A stretch of DNA of 5,389 bases, taken from positions 2,739-8,127 of the forward strand of contig JBBIVP010000095.1 in the NCBI GenBank assembly GCA_037439705.1. The letters run 5' to 3'. This document shows, piece by piece, positions 31-5,389 of the stretch. Source of the DNA: JBBIVP01 sp037439705 [NCBI: bacterium]. GTDB lineage: Bacteria > JBBIVP01. Under the pieces are notes generated by a model. The model was not told the origin of the DNA, ran no database searches, and saw only the letters and a list, made by a program, of their open reading frames with translations. The number at the start of each line of letters is the position of its first letter. The stretch's first letter is position 1. The translations under genes were made by a program, and so were the position numbers.

Positions 31-639
31 TTAATGTAAAAAATGAACATCCTTTCTTTTTTCAAGGACAATTTTTGCAGCCTTTATGATGGTCCATGGG
101 TCTTTTGATGGAACGAGGGAGGCCACTGTTCCAACTATTTTCCCCTCTGGAAGTTGAACGGGTTTTTCATCACCTTCTTCCATTTCAACTGAGGAGTATA
201 TGACAGAAGCAGGACATCCTGTTTTGATTTCTATTTCCTCTTTTATTGAAGAACAAACCGCTATTATTCTTTCTGTTTTTTTGTATTTCCATAATGTGAA
301 AAAATTTTCCTTTAAAGGGGTATCCGTTCTCCTCGTATGAACAAGGGGAATCTTCGTCCAGAGCTTTGCAAAGACTGCTGTATCCTGATCCATCCCCGTG
401 TTTGTATGAACGACATCATATTTTCCTTTTGCCCTCATGAGATAAGAAAATGCTTCCAATCTATTATTAACCCCGAACACGCTTAATCCATGAGCAGATG
501 CCTTTTTGTAAAGGGGTGAATCCTTTCTGCACAAAAGAAAAGCAGAAACTCCCATTTTGTTCAACCCTTTTAAAATCAAGAAGGTTTGCCTTTCCCCTCC
601 ACCCCATCCCTTCATGGTATTTACAAGAAGTATTCTCAT
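31..639 (-). pseudogene. GT4-type glycosyltransferase, truncated in the C-terminal domain
   Basis: This is a cytoplasmic GT-B glycosyltransferase of family GT4, which transfers a sugar from a nucleotide-sugar donor, usually in glycan or lipid glycoside synthesis; donor and acceptor are unknown. The N-terminal Rossmann domain is intact: first strand MRILLV (1-6), glycine-rich loop GWGGGERQ (11-18), DVVHTN (75-80), and the helix with RIIAVCSS (124-131). The linker is VIYSSVEM, where the family usually has VIxNGVD. The second domain begins at about 168 (VGTVASLVPSKDP, 169-181) and ends abruptly at HFLH (199-202). Family members are usually about 350-400 residues, so the donor-binding ExE region is missing. 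Both alternative frames also close within about 50 bp of the truncation point. The start is fixed by the first strand, yet only A/T bases and no Shine-Dalgarno site precede it. It follows the membrane protein gene by 12 bp. It is either a genuine truncation or a contig-end error; the family call is firm, the pseudogene call tentative. Confidence 0.75.
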
Positions 640-651
640 TAAAAATTTTTT

Positions 652-1269
652 TTAGTGATGATGTCCTGTAAACAGAAGAAATAACCCGAGAAAAACAATT
701 ATTATTCCTGAAATCAATTTTCCGTATCTGTCAAGAAATCCCCATTTGAGACCAATGAGTCCTTTGAGAACAAACCCGACAACCAATGGAGGAACAAACA
801 GGGTTGGAATGGAGAGTGAAACCGCTGCGAGATAGAATTCCTTAATGGATGAAGCAATGGCAAGAAAAGTGGGGGCTATGAAAAGGCAGGGATGCATTCC
901 AATTGCTATAGTCAGATAAACACCTTCAGCGGTACCATTATGCTTATGAGAGTGGATTTTTTCTGCCCATTTTTCAGGAAGGAGATAGTATATGCCGAAA
1001 AGAATCAACAGAAATATGGCGAGCCCTTCAACAATTTCTCCAACTTTTAGAGCGGGTTTTACTCCAAAGAAAACAAGAAAACCTATGAGGAGAGAACTTC
1101 CAACATGTATGGTCATTGAAAGAAAGGTAAAAAGAGAAGTTTTGAAGGGATGCCAGTTTCTCACCCTTCCCGTTAATACAAATGGAAGCCAGTGTTCGGG
1201 CATAAGAGAGTGGATTATTGATACTGTAATGGCTGAAAGAACAAAAATCGTTTCTTTCACTCCTTCCAA
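652..1269 (-). CDS. Predicted six-helix metal transporter, NicO/RcnA/UreH-like
   Basis: This is an integral inner-membrane protein of 205 residues with about six hydrophobic helices, near 8-24, 44-68, 78-97, 117-140, 144-170 and 184-201. Helix 1 carries H20-SLMPE-H26, similar in layout to the HAxxxxH motif of nickel/cobalt transporters (NicO, RcnA, UreH). Helix 2 has H55 (TIHVGSS) and helix 4 starts near MHPC (125-128). The loop between helices 3 and 4 has HSHKH (106-110) and the protein ends GHHH. These histidines suggest handling of Ni, Co, Zn or another divalent metal; the direction of transport cannot be told. The TTG start is chosen because GAGGTGG lies 7 nt upstream; an internal GTG three codons later has no room for a ribosome site. 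The gene overlaps the end of the Nudix gene by 13 bp, so translation is probably coupled. A TauE-like or other small exporter is the alternative. Confidence 0.6.
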   Translation of the reverse strand: MEGVKETIFVLSAITVSIIHSLMPEHWLPFVLTGRVRNWHPFKTSLFTFLSMTIHVGSSLLIGFLVFFGVKPALKVGEIVEGLAIFLLILFGIYYLLPEKWAEKIHSHKHNGTAEGVYLTIAIGMHPCLFIAPTFLAIASSIKEFYLAAVSLSIPTLFVPPLVVGFVLKGLIGLKWGFLDRYGKLISGIIIVFLGLFLLFTGHHH

Positions 1270-1799
1270 TTGTAAACCACCTCAAGAAAGTTTTTGATAA
1301 TTTTTGCAGTTGCACCCCATATATTTATATCCTTTATGGTGAAAAAATAAACAGGGTATGGCTCTCCGAGAAAATTCCCTCTTATCTCTTTCCGGAAGTT
1401 TTCCTTTCTCAATAAATCTTCAATTCTTACAAAAAGAATTTCTTCTATCTCATCCCTGCTCAGGACAAATTTCCTCGGATAATCAATAAATCCGACAAAT
1501 GGTTTTATCCTGTAATAGGTAAGGGTAAAGATCTCATCAAGTTCACCAAGAATTTCTATATCGTTCTTATTCACGCCGATCTCTTCGTAAATCTCCCTTA
1601 AAGCAGTTTCAATCAAGGATTCATCATCCTTAACTGTGCCACCGGGAAAACTTATCTGCTTCTGATGGTCTTTTACCCTGTCTGTCCTCAATGTCAAAAG
1701 TATATGTGGAATTCCATTATCAAGAAAAAGTGGCATGATTACAGCAGACCTTTTAAATTCTTCCTTTCCTGAAAGGTTTTTACATCTTTGAGCTCTCAA
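1257..1799 (-). CDS. nudL: Nudix hydrolase, probable CoA pyrophosphatase (NudL type)
   Basis: The likely reaction is hydrolysis of coenzyme A or acyl-CoA to 4'-phosphopantetheine derivatives and 3',5'-ADP in the cytoplasm, a CoA turnover or housecleaning role. The Nudix box is perfect: G54-x5-E60-x7-R68-E-I-Y-E-E-I-G-V76, with Glu69, Glu72 and Glu73 as expected metal ligands. Just before it lies the stretch typical of CoA-cleaving members, LLTLR (34-38), then H45 and QISFPGG (48-54). The length of 180 residues fits the family (E. coli NudL is about 190). The start is TTG at 1799, the only candidate before an in-frame stop that keeps residues ahead of the first strand (SAVIMPL, 18-24); no clear Shine-Dalgarno precedes it, so the start is less certain than the family. 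It lies 38 bp after the SCP2-like gene and overlaps the following membrane protein gene. Confidence 0.88.
   Translation of the reverse strand: MRAQRCKNLSGKEEFKRSAVIMPLFLDNGIPHILLTLRTDRVKDHQKQISFPGGTVKDDESLIETALREIYEEIGVNKNDIEILGELDEIFTLTYYRIKPFVGFIDYPRKFVLSRDEIEEILFVRIEDLLRKENFRKEIRGNFLGEPYPVYFFTIKDINIWGATAKIIKNFLEVVYNWKE
1277..1283 (-). promoter_or_regulatory. Ribosome binding site of the membrane protein gene
   Basis: GAGGTGG on the minus strand lies inside the end of the Nudix gene, 7 nt before the TTG at 1269. It is a strong match to the 16S anti-Shine-Dalgarno sequence and decides for the TTG start over the GTG nine bases further on. Confidence 0.7.
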
Positions 1800-1837: not shown

Positions 1838-2287
1838 TTATATTTTTAATAACTTTTTGGGAATTCTTATCCCAAGCGCAGCAATGGTTTTTAATGCCTT
1901 TTTTCCACCCAGTAAAACCATCTTTACATATCCCTTCCTCGCTGCATCAAGCATTGTGGTTAAAAGGTTAAACTTTATCCATCTTGTAGGAGTTGGATTG
2001 AGCATACATTCTGAAAGTCTCTCCACATAGTCTTCTATCTTCTCTGATTTCAAAGAAAGAAGGTAATCAATAGCATCTTTGCTGAACTTGAAATAAACCT
2101 CCGGTTTTTCGGGTTTTCCTTCAATTATCTGACTCCTTCCACCCTTTTTTATGAGTGTGTAGGGCTGGGGGTCTCCCTCAATCTCAACCCAGGCAACCGC
2201 TCCCTCTTTAAGAGGTTCCACCACCTTTCTCGTTATTTCATTTACCTCAAAAAATTCCTGAATTTTCTTTGCATATTCTCCGAGCAT
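1838..2287 (-). CDS. SCP2-like small protein, possible lipid or hydrophobic ligand carrier
   Basis: This is a soluble protein of 149 residues with no signal peptide or transmembrane helix. Its layout resembles the SCP2 sterol-carrier fold: a first helix (3-14), strands around 29-57 (AVAWVEIEG, then YTLIKKGG), a strand PEVYFKFS (62-69) followed by a helix IDYLLSLKSEKIEDYVERL (73-91), and a C-terminal part with a GGKKALK segment (127-133) leading to a hydrophobic end. In SCP2 proteins the PxVxxxxS-helix element lines a tunnel that binds lipids or acyl chains. The match is one of pattern only, and residues 95-120 (RWIKFNLLTTMLDAARKG region) look less SCP2-like. The start ATG has AGGAG 7 nt upstream and follows the Fe-S gene by 12 bp, so it is very probably co-expressed with the flavoprotein and Fe-S subunit and may present a substrate to them or assist assembly. 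The function is unproven. Confidence 0.5.
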   Translation of the reverse strand: MLGEYAKKIQEFFEVNEITRKVVEPLKEGAVAWVEIEGDPQPYTLIKKGGRSQIIEGKPEKPEVYFKFSKDAIDYLLSLKSEKIEDYVERLSECMLNPTPTRWIKFNLLTTMLDAARKGYVKMVLLGGKKALKTIAALGIRIPKKLLKI

Positions 2288-2294
2288 TTTCCTT

Positions 2295-2299
2295 CTCCT
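2295..2299 (-). promoter_or_regulatory. Ribosome binding site of the SCP2-like gene
   Basis: AGGAG on the minus strand fills most of the 12-bp gap after the Fe-S protein stop and stands 7 nt before the ATG at 2287. It supports that start and independent re-initiation within the operon. Confidence 0.75.
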
Positions 2300-3334
2300 T
2301 TATATTTCATATATATCAAACACCCTTATTTTTTCTTTTTCAAGATTAAACCTGCAAAGGGGGCAGGCTACAACTATATCCTTATTTATTTTTCTTATTT
2401 CATCTCTCATCCTTTTTCTCAAAAATTTTTTAAGTTCCTCATTGCTTCCCCAGTTTCCTCCGCAACAGACTGCATTCTTTCTGTTAAGTTCCATCTCATA
2501 AACCTTTAGTCCCCTCTCTTTTAAAACCTCCCTTGGAAGTTCATACTGTCCGAGAAATCTTCCGAGCTTGCAGGAATCGTGATATACAAACTCTCCTTCT
2601 TTAGGTGAAAAATCCTTCAGAAGCTCAATTGCAGATTTGAGTTCTAAATCAATTCCATTTTCATCACAATAGGTTTTCACAGCCCAGAAGCAGTGTGGAT
2701 CCATAAAATAAACACTCTTATTTTTGAACCTTTCAATGAGTTTGGAAACCCTTTCCTCAAACTCTTTTTTTGCTCCTATCTCAAGAAAGGGTGCTCCACA
2801 GCATCCATCCATTATGATTCCAGGAGATAATCCCTTTCTTTTCAATTCATCAATGAACTTTTCAAGCGTTGATGGATAGAGATATAGATAGGAACATCCT
2901 GGAAATATATGAGCATCTCCATCTTCTTTAAATTTTGATTTAATCTTCTTTCCCCATGGATTTCCACTCTTCTCAAAATTTTTTAGAATCTTTTTCATCT
3001 CTTCTGTTCTTCTTCCAGATTCATAAAAGGTTTCCTTCAGATCCCTTATAGCTTCTTTTATGGGCAAAGATGAAGGACAGCTCAAAACGCAGGCATGACA
3101 GTTCATACAGGTGTATATCACATCGCCCATTTCTTCTCCATTTACCGAAATCTTTCCTTCTATCAAACCTTGAGCTGTGTATAGCTTTCCACATCCTGAA
3201 AATGTGATAAATCCCCTGTAAAGGAAGGCTGGACATATTGTCTCTGAAGGCTGGCTTTCAGGATGGATACAACTTCTGCATTTGTTGCAGGTATAAAGGT
3301 ATGGCAAATAATCAATATCTCTTGAAAGTGCCAT
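2300..3334 (-). CDS. Iron-sulfur CCG-domain subunit, GlcF/GlpC/HdrD-like
   Basis: This is the electron-accepting partner of the flavoprotein encoded just upstream, by analogy with GlcF, GlpC and HdrD. The N-terminal half is a double-cluster ferredoxin domain: C16-x2-C19-x2-C22-x11-C34-P and C76-x2-C79-x2-C82-x3-C86-P, enough for two [4Fe-4S] clusters. Two CCG domains follow. The first has C147, C178-C179-G and then DPHC (212-215), where an aspartate stands in place of the usual first cysteine of CxxC. The second is complete: C255 (HDSCKLGR), C290-C291-G-G and C324-P-L-C327. In HdrB/HdrD such motifs bind catalytic or electron-relay iron-sulfur clusters. The length of 344 residues is slightly short for GlcF. 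No membrane helix or signal is seen, so the protein is cytoplasmic or peripheral; its quinone, heterodisulfide or other acceptor is unknown. Its ATG follows the flavoprotein TAA with no gap and has no good Shine-Dalgarno, so translation is probably coupled. Confidence 0.88.
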   Translation of the reverse strand: MALSRDIDYLPYLYTCNKCRSCIHPESQPSETICPAFLYRGFITFSGCGKLYTAQGLIEGKISVNGEEMGDVIYTCMNCHACVLSCPSSLPIKEAIRDLKETFYESGRRTEEMKKILKNFEKSGNPWGKKIKSKFKEDGDAHIFPGCSYLYLYPSTLEKFIDELKRKGLSPGIIMDGCCGAPFLEIGAKKEFEERVSKLIERFKNKSVYFMDPHCFWAVKTYCDENGIDLELKSAIELLKDFSPKEGEFVYHDSCKLGRFLGQYELPREVLKERGLKVYEMELNRKNAVCCGGNWGSNEELKKFLRKRMRDEIRKINKDIVVACPLCRFNLEKEKIRVFDIYEI

Positions 3335-4867
3335 TTATTTCATCAAAAGCTTTTTTCCAAAAATCATAAGAGAATATCCTGGATTCATTATGTTCAAAGG
3401 GTCTATTGCTTTTTTTATCTTCAAAAGAACCTCTCCATACTTTCCTGTCATCTCAAGGGTCTCACCAAAGTTTGTTTCAAAAGGAGGTCTTATTGGCACT
3501 CCTCCGTATTTCTTCATAGCTATCTCCATATACCTCTTTCTTACCCTCATTGCCCTTTCCCTCTCCTTCTTTGAAGATTCAGCCACAATAAAAGGTGTCA
3601 TCCTCAAGAATACACATCTCGTCTGGTCAACGGAATGGCTGTAGTATGCAAGTCCTACCTTAAGAGGACTTTTTCTCAAAAACCTCAATCCCCATTCCTC
3701 AAGGTCAGAAACCCTTACGGGGTCTGTAAAGGTTATTCCCATCATAGGAAATCCCTCACCGTAGGCTCCCATGAAGGTATTTGTTGGGATGTGAAGGGCG
3801 TAGTGGTCATAGAAAAATTTGTATGCTCCAGGAAATTTTTCTTTTATGTAATCAGTACACACAAATCCACCGCATTCTTTGGCAATCCTTTCAAATGCTC
3901 TTTCGTGGGCGGCTATGTCTTCCCTTTCTCCGCTCATTGATGGAACAACCACATTATAAGGTCTATCGTCAGGAGGAGACCATGGGTCATAAACAAGAAC
4001 CTCTGATGGTGCTCCGTGCCCATATCTTTCAAGATGGTCTATTATTGTGTAAAGGCACCAGTGCCATACACATACATGCTGACAGAGATTTGCCCTTGTC
4101 AATCTCTTCATAAATTCCACTGACTTTCTGTATGAATCAAAACCTGCAAGAGGCATTATCGGATAATTCAGGTTGTAAATCCTGACTGCTCCCTTTGTTA
4201 CTATCCCGAGGGTTCCGTGGGAATTTATAAAAAGGGAAGTTATGTCAGGAAAAGAATTGGTATAAGAGTGCCATGTCATATTCTTTATTGAATGAGAAAA
4301 TGCCATTGACCCTGTTCTCATAATCTCCCCATCAGGAAGAACCACCTCAATTCCAAGAATGTCATGAAGTATACCGCTTGAACGATGAGAATTTACCGCA
4401 ACCTGTAAATAATTTCCAATAACCGAAATTGATGGTGGGAATGAACCAACAGTACACCTCGTCCCCTTTTCCCTCAATCTCATTGCAAAATCGCCTATGC
4501 GGACACCGGGCTCAAGAACTGCATATCCCCTTTCTACATCTATCTCCATGATTCTATCCATCTTCATAAGGTCAAGAACAATTCCCCCAAAAAACGGGTA
4601 TATTCCAGCTTCCTGTGTAGCAGATGCTGACGGAGTAATTGGAAGTTTGTATTGAACTGCCAGTTTCACAATTTTTTGAATTTCTTCTACCGAGGGCGGA
4701 AGAACTACAAAATCAGGCATATATTTTGGATAAACCATCCCTGTTCCAGAATAGGAATACACGCTTTCAGGAGTTGAAAGGACATTTTTCTCACCCACTA
4801 TATTTTGAAGTGCCCTTTTTATCCTCTCCTTTTTTTCTTTCGTAAGTTTTATCCTTTTGCTAATCAT
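3335..4867 (-). CDS. FAD-dependent dehydrogenase, VAO/PCMH (GlcD-like) superfamily
   Basis: This is the catalytic flavoprotein of the cluster, expected to oxidise an organic substrate (hydroxyacid, alcohol or phenol-like; not predictable here) and pass electrons to the Fe-S partner. The FAD-binding domain (FAD_binding_4) runs from about 50 to 231: PDFVVLPPSVEEIQKIVKLA (51-70), the loop region 78-95 ending in GGIVLDL (94-100), YAVLEPGVRIG (115-125), GIEVVLPDGEIMRTG (172-186) and HGTLGIVTKGAVRIY (217-231). The C-terminal FAD-oxidase domain ends with the family hallmark DPLNIMNPG (489-497). The pattern around 103-125 and the long substrate domain resemble the p-cresol methylhydroxylase/vanillyl-alcohol oxidase branch as much as GlcD. 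The usual glycine-rich pyrophosphate loop is replaced by a Ser/Ala/Thr loop (TPSASATQEAG, 78-88). The length of 510 residues fits the superfamily. The start overlaps the lipoprotein stop as ATGA, with GGAG 5 nt upstream. No signal peptide is seen. Whether FAD is covalently bound cannot be told. Confidence 0.88.
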   Translation of the reverse strand: MISKRIKLTKEKKERIKRALQNIVGEKNVLSTPESVYSYSGTGMVYPKYMPDFVVLPPSVEEIQKIVKLAVQYKLPITPSASATQEAGIYPFFGGIVLDLMKMDRIMEIDVERGYAVLEPGVRIGDFAMRLREKGTRCTVGSFPPSISVIGNYLQVAVNSHRSSGILHDILGIEVVLPDGEIMRTGSMAFSHSIKNMTWHSYTNSFPDITSLFINSHGTLGIVTKGAVRIYNLNYPIMPLAGFDSYRKSVEFMKRLTRANLCQHVCVWHWCLYTIIDHLERYGHGAPSEVLVYDPWSPPDDRPYNVVVPSMSGEREDIAAHERAFERIAKECGGFVCTDYIKEKFPGAYKFFYDHYALHIPTNTFMGAYGEGFPMMGITFTDPVRVSDLEEWGLRFLRKSPLKVGLAYYSHSVDQTRCVFLRMTPFIVAESSKKERERAMRVRKRYMEIAMKKYGGVPIRPPFETNFGETLEMTGKYGEVLLKIKKAIDPLNIMNPGYSLMIFGKKLLMK

Positions 4868-5313
4868 TTAATCTCCGGTCCCGTTATAATGAGTGATATT
4901 TTGAGGTCTATTTCTTCTCTGTCTTCTGGTCCATCAAGAGAAAGTGAAAATGTTAAATATCTTCCCTCTTCAAGATAGGGAAACAGGTCTGTCTGGGAAA
5001 ATAAAAAAACGCCTTTTTGGTAAGAAGCAATTTTTAAGTAGCTATCACTTCTGACCACGCTTAAATCAGCGGACTCCCAAGAAATCTCATCCTCAAAAGC
5101 AATGCTTTCCACTTCAATTCTTTTTATCTCTTCTATCTTTTTTATCTCATCATTTGAAAAAAGGTCAATTTGGGAATAAAAATTTTTTCCCTCTTCACTT
5201 TTTACGAACCTCGAAATGAATTCCTCCCTTATATGTTTAACATCGTTATTTACCATACCGCATCCAAATAATGGAAAGATAAAAATAAAGATTTTAAATA
5301 ACCCTTTCATCAT
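4864..5313 (-). CDS. Small predicted lipoprotein of unknown function
   Basis: This protein of 149 residues matches no family I recognise. The N-terminus looks like a lipoprotein signal: two Met, Lys3, a hydrophobic stretch (5-16) and a lipobox-like LFGC with Cys18 as the predicted lipidated residue; Phe at -2 is less common, so this is likely rather than certain. The mature part is highly charged, with a probable helical segment (about 22-72, many Glu/Lys/Ile) and a more strand-like C-terminal half (about 82-148, with FSQTDLFPYLEEGRYLTFSLSL). It would be anchored in a membrane outside the cytoplasm. The start lies only 5 bp after the tRNA-Glu 3' end, leaving no room for its own promoter and no clear Shine-Dalgarno; the second ATG at 5310 is equally possible. 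Its TGA overlaps the flavoprotein ATG by four bases, which ties it to the redox operon, though the proteins should end up on opposite sides of the membrane. Confidence 0.72.
   Translation of the reverse strand: MMKGLFKIFIFIFPLFGCGMVNNDVKHIREEFISRFVKSEEGKNFYSQIDLFSNDEIKKIEEIKRIEVESIAFEDEISWESADLSVVRSDSYLKIASYQKGVFLFSQTDLFPYLEEGRYLTFSLSLDGPEDREEIDLKISLIITGPEIK
4873..4876 (-). promoter_or_regulatory. Ribosome binding site of the flavoprotein gene
   Basis: GGAG on the minus strand lies 5 nt before the flavoprotein ATG, within the last codons of the lipoprotein gene. With the ATGA stop/start overlap it supports translational coupling. Confidence 0.6.
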
Positions 5314-5318
5314 TCTAA

Positions 5319-5389
5319 CGTCCCCGACGGGATTTGAACCCGTGTTCTCGGCTCGAAAGGCCCGTGTCCTTGACCGAACTAGACGACGG
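5319..5389 (-). tRNA. tRNA-Glu (anticodon UUC), 5' end cut by the window
   Basis: On the minus strand the D-arm GTCTAG...GGAC, the anticodon loop CTTTCGA with anticodon TTC (plus positions 5355-5357), a 4-nt variable loop, a T-arm ACGGG-TTCAAAT-CCCGT and the acceptor 3' strand CGGGGAC plus discriminator G (5319) can be laid out in standard numbering. CCG at the very edge pairs with CGG of the acceptor, so four 5' bases (GTCC expected) lie outside. The next bases are TTAGA, so CCA is not encoded and must be added after transcription. The anticodon stem is odd: CGGGC opposite GCCGA gives three pairs and mismatches C27-A43 and G28-G42, where bacterial tRNA-Glu normally has five pairs. It is either a sequence error near the contig end or a weakened stem. 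The gene probably shares a transcript with the operon that begins 5 bp downstream. Confidence 0.88.

What the first reader, a model, noticed from the sequence alone, without database searches (positions are those of the whole stretch)
1838..4867. Coupled three-gene redox module: VAO/PCMH-like flavoprotein, CCG Fe-S protein and SCP2-like protein
The flavoprotein stop touches the Fe-S start, and the SCP2-like gene follows after 12 bp with a strong ribosome site. Flavoprotein/CCG Fe-S pairs are known from GlcD/GlcF, GlpA/GlpC and similar enzymes (established). A co-encoded SCP2-like carrier is not part of those systems as I know them and suggests a hydrophobic, lipid-derived or acyl substrate, or a membrane-delivered one (inference). 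The PCMH/VAO-like features of the flavoprotein point away from plain glycolate or lactate.
Basis: partly seen in the sequence, partly recalled or inferred. Interest (0 to 1): 0.65.

Follow-up and report, generated by a model that had tools for sequence, protein, structure and literature searches.

The report
Flavoenzyme pair with lipid-carrier-like gene
Three closely spaced genes encode a flavin enzyme, its iron-sulfur electron carrier and a small protein that resembles lipid carriers, which suggests, but does not show, that the enzyme works on a greasy molecule.

Summary
The three genes are real and in one tight run. A fourth, lipoprotein-like gene overlaps the flavoprotein start by ATGA, so the trio is part of a longer same-strand run. 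The Fe-S protein is a genuine CCG protein. The flavoprotein is certain only as a FAD_binding_4 protein. It lacks the GlcD metal motifs seen in 9 of 9 GlcD-type references and the phenol-site motifs seen in 8 of 8 VAO/PCMH-type references; in a tree it is a long branch outside both groups. The small protein has no SCP2 Pfam hit. It carries weak but above-control SCP2 sequence similarity, and a low-confidence model retrieves SCP2 proteins as the top 12 PDB matches. I found no second copy of the trio, but the test was weak: the window's genome is not held, and only one other phylum, plasmids and viral contigs could be searched widely. Best reading: a FAD/Fe-S dehydrogenase with a dedicated hydrophobic-substrate carrier, a new combination of known parts, substrate unknown. 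UbiT/UbiJ show that SCP2 proteins serve redox pathways; the benzene 'Magic' cluster is a FAD/Fe-S set proposed for an aromatic substrate.

The parts
3335..4867 (-). Flavoprotein, 510 aa: FAD_binding_4 (PCMH-type FAD-binding) domain at residues 51-186; divergent C-terminal half
   Evidence: Pfam FAD_binding_4 83.4 bits; best NCBIfam glcD 82 bits, far below its cut-off of 567.9; PDB hits VAO/PCMH enzymes and D-lactate dehydrogenases; motif table; tree
2300..3334 (-). Fe-S electron-transfer protein, 344 aa: two N-terminal ferredoxin-type motifs (C16,C19,C22,C34; C76,C79,C82,C86) and two CCG domains (CCG at 178 and 290)
   Evidence: Pfam CCG 62.3 bits, two stretches; cysteine positions; starts directly after the flavoprotein stop
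1838..2287 (-). SCP2-like protein, 149 aa, with an apparent helical insert before the last conserved segment (insert inferred)
   Evidence: no PF02036 row; AF2 model mean pLDDT 56.9; top 12 Foldseek PDB rows are SCP2 proteins, best E 6.4e-4; profile score 10.1 bits, 0 of 3000 shuffles reach it
4864..5313 (-). Lipoprotein-like gene, 149 aa (N-terminal hydrophobic stretch and LFGC, read by eye); its TGA overlaps the flavoprotein ATG (ATGA)
   Evidence: no family hit over a cut-off; lipobox by eye, no signal-peptide program run
1257..1799 (-). Downstream NUDIX hydrolase, nearest to CoA pyrophosphatase; may or may not be in the same transcript
   Evidence: Pfam NUDIX 55 bits; NCBIfam CoA pyrophosphatase 97.7 bits, under its cut-off of 134

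Best explanation
The pair is a cytoplasmic flavin dehydrogenase. The substrate is oxidised (or reduced) at the FAD of the 510-aa protein, and electrons pass through the ferredoxin-type and CCG clusters of the 344-aa protein to a quinone or another carrier. The SCP2-like protein binds a hydrophobic substrate or product and presents it to the flavoprotein, as UbiJ does, and UbiT is proposed to do, for quinone precursors. Shown: gene order, spacing and overlap, FAD and CCG domains, cysteine motifs, absence of GlcD and VAO/PCMH signature motifs. Supported but not proven: the SCP2 fold. Inferred: complex formation, direction, acceptor, cytoplasmic location, and the hydrophobic nature of the substrate.
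For: Gene spacing. FAD_binding_4 and CCG far above cut-offs. The best NCBIfam relatives of the Fe-S protein are redox Fe-S proteins: TfrB, LdhH, a dicluster protein, GlpC, DsrK. SCP2-like: Foldseek's top 12 rows are all SCP2 proteins; in the VIA-align second look SCP2 proteins reach Z 6.3; HMM 10.1 bits against a maximum of 8.2 in 3000 shuffles, hhalign score 24.5 against a maximum of 20.8 in 200 shuffles. GlcD metal motifs absent, which argues against a plain 2-hydroxyacid. Precedent for SCP2 proteins in redox pathways: PMC6747719, passages seen.
Against: No second genome with the trio was found. The SCP2 model has mean pLDDT 56.9, and residues 92-149 are nearly all under 50. PF02036 itself does not match, and hhalign's own probability for the SCP2 profile is 18.4%. 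VIA-align Z stays under 8, which its note calls middling, and its three best rows are alkylsulfatases. By raw score the flavoprotein is nearest to GlcD-type proteins. The window run includes genes with no obvious tie (NUDIX, membrane protein, glycosyltransferase), so adjacency could be incidental.
Confidence: 0.45

Rival explanations
1. Ordinary GlcD/GlcF-like dehydrogenase of a small hydroxyacid or similar soluble substrate; the SCP2-like gene is only an operon neighbour.
For: Best NCBIfam match of the flavoprotein is glcD. In my set of 20 reference flavoproteins its six best phmmer scores are all to GlcD-type proteins, 93-114 bits. FAD/Fe-S pairs of this kind are found elsewhere. None of the 37 regions around SCP2 genes in the searched phylum held a FAD/CCG pair.
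Against: H.GDGN.H, present in 9 of 9 GlcD-type references and in none of the other 11, is absent, as is EHG.G, present in the same 9. The tree puts the protein outside the GlcD group (long branch); the other three GlcD-type references score only 42-62 bits.
Confidence: 0.27
2. Anaerobic modification of an isoprenoid quinone or polyprenyl lipid: the SCP2-like protein holds the lipid as UbiJ does, while the FAD/Fe-S pair does the redox step.
For: UbiJ-SCP2 structures are among the top Foldseek rows. UbiJ binds quinone intermediates, and UbiT is an SCP2 protein acting with UbiU/UbiV, which carry [4Fe-4S] clusters (passages). Lipoprotein-like and glycosyltransferase genes in the same run hint at envelope lipids (inference).
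Against: No U32, prenyl or quinone-biosynthesis family among the Pfam rows of the seven window proteins. The SCP2 match is to the fold at large, not to UbiT/UbiJ in particular.
Confidence: 0.15
3. Anaerobic aromatic or hydrocarbon activation or oxidation, like the FAD/Fe-S/FAD proteins of the benzene 'Magic' cluster, with the SCP2-like protein handling the hydrophobic substrate.
For: That cluster pairs FAD-binding oxidoreductases with an Hdr-like Fe-S protein in which two of four cysteine motifs lack conserved cysteines; here the first CCG domain ends in PHC instead of CxxC. A FAD-FeS-FAD set on an Agrobacterium vitis plasmid shares the long first Fe-S motif with the window protein.
Against: Here there is one FAD gene, not two, and no CoA ligase, CoA transferase or MaoC family among the window's Pfam rows. 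The sequences of that cluster could not be compared. 'SCP' and 'sterol' do not occur in that paper's main text.
Confidence: 0.1

Closest known systems
GlcD/GlcF (glycolate dehydrogenase GlcDEF) and related FAD/CCG pairs
   Same: FAD_binding_4 flavoprotein and a CCG Fe-S protein with two ferredoxin-type motifs in one gene run
   Different: GlcD metal motifs absent; scores far under the glcD and GlcF cut-offs; first Fe-S motif is C2C2C11CP, not C2C2C3CP; an SCP2-like gene is present, GlcE and GlcG are not
VAO/PCMH family (p-cresol methylhydroxylase, eugenol and vanillyl alcohol oxidases)
   Same: Highest PDB sequence matches, within residues 18-264; near full-length BLAST alignment to one such protein, 26% over 534 columns
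   Different: GKN/GRN..YG and YRT motifs, 8 of 8 in references, absent; partner is a CCG Fe-S protein, whereas 6 of the 8 references have a cytochrome c gene next door or one gene away
FAD-FeS-FAD proteins #24-26 of the ORM2 benzene 'Magic' cluster (PMC13101534) and the Agrobacterium vitis FAD-FeS-FAD set
   Same: FAD protein with an Hdr/CCG-like Fe-S protein that has lost some cysteines; the A. vitis Fe-S protein shares the long first motif
   Different: Two FAD genes; no SCP2-like gene mentioned in that paper's main text or annotated in the A. vitis stretch
UbiT/UbiJ SCP2 accessory proteins
   Same: Small SCP2 protein serving a redox pathway, with Fe-S partners UbiU/UbiV in the case of UbiT
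   Different: Their partners are U32 proteins (UbiT) or other Ubi enzymes (UbiJ), not a FAD/CCG pair

Membership tests
GlcD-type 2-hydroxyacid dehydrogenases | FAD_binding_4 domain | tested here: met
   83.4 bits, cut-off 26.4
GlcD-type 2-hydroxyacid dehydrogenases | C-terminal metal motifs H.GDGN.H and EHG.G (metal role recalled) | tested here: not met
   both absent; present in 9 of 9 GlcD-type references. EHG.G alone is not specific: it also occurs, in two different places, in 4 of 8 VAO/PCMH-type references
GlcD-type 2-hydroxyacid dehydrogenases | NCBIfam glcD cut-off | tested here: not met
   82 bits against 567.9
VAO/PCMH 4-phenol oxidising enzymes | phenol-site motifs (Tyr of GKN.GYG, Tyr-Arg of YRT; roles recalled) | tested here: not met
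   absent; both present in 8 of 8 references (YRT also occurs once near the N-terminus of E. coli GlcD). The Arg of the Y-R pair may be kept as I-R (alignment)
VAO/PCMH 4-phenol oxidising enzymes | falls inside the family's clade | tested here: not met
   8 references form a 100/100 clade without it; long branch, so its exact place is unsure
VAO/PCMH 4-phenol oxidising enzymes | covalent flavin (His or Tyr) | not testable with these tools
   no reliable model (pLDDT 33)
CCG Fe-S electron-transfer subunits (GlcF/GlpC/HdrD type) | CCG domains | tested here: met
   62.3 bits, cut-off 20.6, two stretches; second domain complete, first ends in PHC
CCG Fe-S electron-transfer subunits (GlcF/GlpC/HdrD type) | two N-terminal 4Fe-4S motifs | tested here: met
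   cysteines 16,19,22,34 and 76,79,82,86; Pfam Fer4_8 23.5 bits is just under its cut-off of 27
SCP2 (PF02036) | match to the Pfam model | tested here: not met
   no PF02036 row at E<=1
SCP2 (PF02036) | SCP2 fold | tested here: inconclusive
   top 12 Foldseek rows are SCP2 proteins, best E 6.4e-4, TM 0.29-0.37 by query; model pLDDT 56.9; VIA-align Z up to 6.3 for SCP2 proteins
SCP2 (PF02036) | sequence similarity to SCP2 proteins above chance | tested here: met
   10.1 bits, 0 of 3000 shuffles reach it (2343 of them reported a score, maximum 8.2); unrelated ORFs at most 3.4; but hhalign probability only 18.4%
SCP2 (PF02036) | lipid-binding cavity | not testable with these tools
   model too poor; needs structure or binding assay

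The most novel reading that the evidence does not exclude
A previously undescribed FAD/CCG Fe-S dehydrogenase with its own SCP2 carrier acts on a lipid-like or other hydrophobic substrate and feeds the electrons into respiration, a FAD/Fe-S counterpart of UbiT with UbiU/UbiV.
Probability: 0.3. Interest if true: 0.55.

Novelty: new variant of a known kind. Interest (0 to 1): 0.36.

Why it matters
FAD/CCG pairs are often annotated by default as glycolate or lactate dehydrogenases (general knowledge). This one lacks the GlcD metal motifs, and its small partner narrows the guess about its substrate to something hydrophobic, which is testable. If it recurs, it would mark a class of oxidoreductases for lipids or aromatics hidden under 'FAD-binding oxidoreductase'.

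Tried and rejected
Recurrence of the trio: one genome-contig scan with the flavoprotein gave a single GlcD-type locus at 26% identity. Viral-contig scans with each of the three proteins gave no relative. In the phylum of that locus, 4 of 398 genomes had a flavoprotein match at E<=1e-30; all four (L017-L020) carry the GlcD motifs H.GDGN.H and EHG.G. In the class of G229, 0 of 97 genomes matched the flavoprotein at the stricter 1e-33, and 0 of 97 matched the SCP2-like protein at 0.01; the tool warns that such empty answers show nothing. For the Fe-S protein, 32 of 100 genomes matched; the best by E-value has 27% identity over residues 63-333, so I take none as an ortholog. In plasmids the flavoprotein matched 607 records, all under 60% identity, and the Fe-S protein 53 records, likewise.

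SCP2 next to FAD/CCG pairs: PF02036 hit 44 places in 27 of 199 genomes. I fetched 37 regions covering 42 of those 44 places, some cut short by contig ends; the other two (G282, G154) I have only as short loci L044 and L045. At E<=1e-4 with profiles made from the window proteins and their hits, none of these held both a flavoprotein and a CCG-type hit. The single Fe-S-like hit (L082, same place as L043) is by eye an aldo/keto-reductase-like protein with ferredoxin motifs.

Hypothetical proteins beside VAO/PCMH-type genes of plasmids (6 tested) are not SCP2-like. The flavoprotein model is useless (pLDDT 33). A C-terminal-only PDB search found nothing significant. The small protein has no significant PDB sequence match and no plasmid match. 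Six paper searches for the combination listed no paper whose title or shown abstract describes the trio. Of papers I saw only listings with the start of abstracts, passages of PMC3949148, PMC7617285 and PMC6747719, and passages and section 12 of PMC13101534.

My first SCP2 profile included one wrong-frame ORF (L036); it gave 8.2 bits against a maximum of 6.6 in 3000 shuffles. One search repeats the test without it (26 rows). Two long ORFs (L038, L039) were left out of both by a length limit, and L043 was never picked.
Full report
The observation. Seven ORFs that I take as genes lie on the - strand: in transcription order a lipoprotein-like protein (4864-5313), the flavoprotein (3335-4867), the Fe-S protein (2300-3334), the small protein (1838-2287), a NUDIX hydrolase (1257-1799), a membrane protein (652-1269) and the N-terminal part of a glycosyltransferase (31-639). 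The flavoprotein TAA is followed directly by the ATG of the Fe-S gene, and 12 bases separate the Fe-S stop from the small gene, whose ATG has AAGGAG upstream. Promoter-like and terminator-like sites are no more frequent than in shuffles (9 against 13.0, 4 against 4.5), and none of the four terminator-like sites is on the - strand.

The flavoprotein. Pfam finds FAD_binding_4 (83.4 bits) and only a trace of FAD-oxidase_C. NCBIfam's best is glcD at 82 bits against a cut-off of 567.9. The best PDB sequence matches are p-cresol methylhydroxylase and vanillyl/eugenol-type oxidases, mainly over the FAD-binding half, and D-lactate dehydrogenases follow closely. I aligned it with 20 other flavoproteins: 9 GlcD-type, 8 VAO/PCMH-type (labels mine; seven match a PCMH fragment at 50-62% identity, and the eighth, from Massilia, came), E. 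coli GlcE, and the two FAD proteins of an Agrobacterium vitis FAD-FeS-FAD set. H.GDGN.H and EHG.G are in 9 of 9 GlcD-type rows; GKN/GRN..YG and YRT are in 8 of 8 VAO/PCMH-type rows; the window protein has none of them, like GlcE and both A. vitis proteins. Two of the patterns are not fully specific: EHG.G also occurs in 4 VAO/PCMH-type rows and YRT once in E. coli GlcD. In the tree (midpoint root) it lies on the side of the VAO/PCMH and A. vitis proteins, but outside the 100/100 VAO/PCMH clade and on a long branch, so its place is unsure. By raw phmmer score its six nearest rows are GlcD-type (114-93 bits), ahead of the VAO/PCMH-type rows (78-62 bits), while the other three GlcD-type rows score 62-42; this goes against a simple VAO/PCMH label. 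The metal and phenol roles of these motifs are recalled from the literature, not tested.

The Fe-S protein. CCG is found in two stretches (62.3 bits). Cysteines 16, 19, 22, 34 and 76, 79, 82, 86 form two ferredoxin-type motifs. The second CCG domain is complete (C...CCGG...CPLC), while the first ends in DPHC in place of CxxC. The first ferredoxin motif has 11 residues before the last cysteine. Of the 16 Fe-S rows compared (14 distinct) only the A. vitis one has such a long motif. By BLAST score, however, the closest rows are proteins with short motifs from genomes related to G001 (91 bits for the best against 51 for A. vitis), so the shared motif is only a hint. The best NCBIfam relatives (TfrB, LdhH, a dicluster protein, GlpC, DsrK) are all far below their cut-offs.

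The small protein. Pfam, NCBIfam and PHROGs give nothing significant, nor do PDB sequences. An AlphaFold2 model from the single sequence has mean pLDDT 56.9, with residues 92-149 nearly all under 50. Still, Foldseek's first 12 PDB rows are all SCP2 proteins (best E 6.4e-4), among them UbiJ-SCP2 and Archaeoglobus AF1534; TM-scores are low, 0.29-0.37 by query. The VIA-align second look lists SCP2 proteins (Z up to 6.3) and other entries (alkylsulfatases up to 6.9, SpnK and MycE methyltransferases, Eis) that I recall as carrying SCP2-like domains; its note calls such Z values middling. A profile built from 26 SCP2 proteins scores it 10.1 bits; 0 of 3000 shuffles reach that (2343 reported a score, maximum 8.2) and the reversed sequence scores -1.0. 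Of 837 ORFs of 100-220 aa from the fetched loci 424 reported a score; 63 score 8 or more, all in loci fetched for SCP2 (some are in the profile), only one lies between 3 and 25, at 3.4, and the rest score 3 or less. hhalign gives a score of 24.5 against a maximum of 20.8 in 200 shuffles, but a probability of only 18.4%. The match covers residues 27-78, which hold the four predicted strands of that part. I take it as SCP2-like, not as a PF02036 member.

Does the trio recur? No genome is held for the window. Viral contigs gave nothing. In the one phylum I could reach, the only four flavoprotein matches at E<=1e-30 in 398 genomes carry the GlcD motifs; a class of 97 genomes gave none at 1e-33, and none for the small protein at 0.01. 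There, 0 of 37 regions around SCP2 genes (42 of 44 places) held a FAD/CCG pair. This says nothing about the window's own lineage.

Mechanism. I favour a FAD dehydrogenase that hands electrons through the CCG protein to a membrane or soluble acceptor, with the SCP2-like protein binding a hydrophobic substrate or product. The carrier idea has a precedent: UbiJ's SCP2 domain binds ubiquinone precursors, and UbiT is an SCP2 protein working with UbiU/UbiV, which carry [4Fe-4S] clusters (PMC6747719, passages). A FAD/Fe-S set has been proposed for anaerobic benzene activation: proteins #24-26 of the ORM2 'Magic' cluster, whose Fe-S protein also lacks some conserved cysteines (PMC13101534, section 12 and passages). 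That paper reports GlcDEF-like architecture at no more than 23% identity, and its main text does not contain 'SCP' or 'sterol'. Which substrate applies here is open.

Verdict. A real, tightly packed gene set, most likely a new combination of known parts rather than a new kind of system. The SCP2 reading and the hydrophobic-substrate reading are plausible but unproven, and recurrence is untested where it matters.

Noticed in passing
window 4864-5313 (-): Lipoprotein-like 149-aa gene with no family match over a cut-off whose stop overlaps the flavoprotein start (ATGA); its first ATG lies 5 bases after the apparent end of a tRNA gene, leaving no usual room for a ribosome site.
   Followed up: partly
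window 5319-5389 (-): Apparent incomplete tRNA gene, by eye tRNA-Glu (UUC) of bacterial type without encoded CCA, cut by the window end; ARAGORN reports no tRNA, presumably because of the cut.
   Followed up: no
window 31-639 (-): Glycosyltransferase ORF that ends after the GT4 N-terminal domain (202 aa), with no C-terminal domain; a real short gene, a frame break or an assembly fault cannot be told apart here.
   Followed up: no
window 652-1269 (-): Membrane-protein-like ORF of 205 aa with a histidine-rich C-terminus and an EHWLPF motif (by eye); no significant Pfam, NCBIfam or PHROGs match.
   Followed up: no
L092, L093, L095, L097, L098, L100: These six plasmid VAO/PCMH-type genes are preceded by a hypothetical gene of about 180-220 aa; five of the six (not L095) also have a cytochrome c gene within two genes.
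   Followed up: partly
L102 716-5210: FAD-FeS-FAD gene set on an Agrobacterium vitis plasmid; its Fe-S protein has one CCG motif only, and that Fe-S protein is 94-100% identical in 8 plasmid records (the other seven neighbourhoods not examined).
   Followed up: partly
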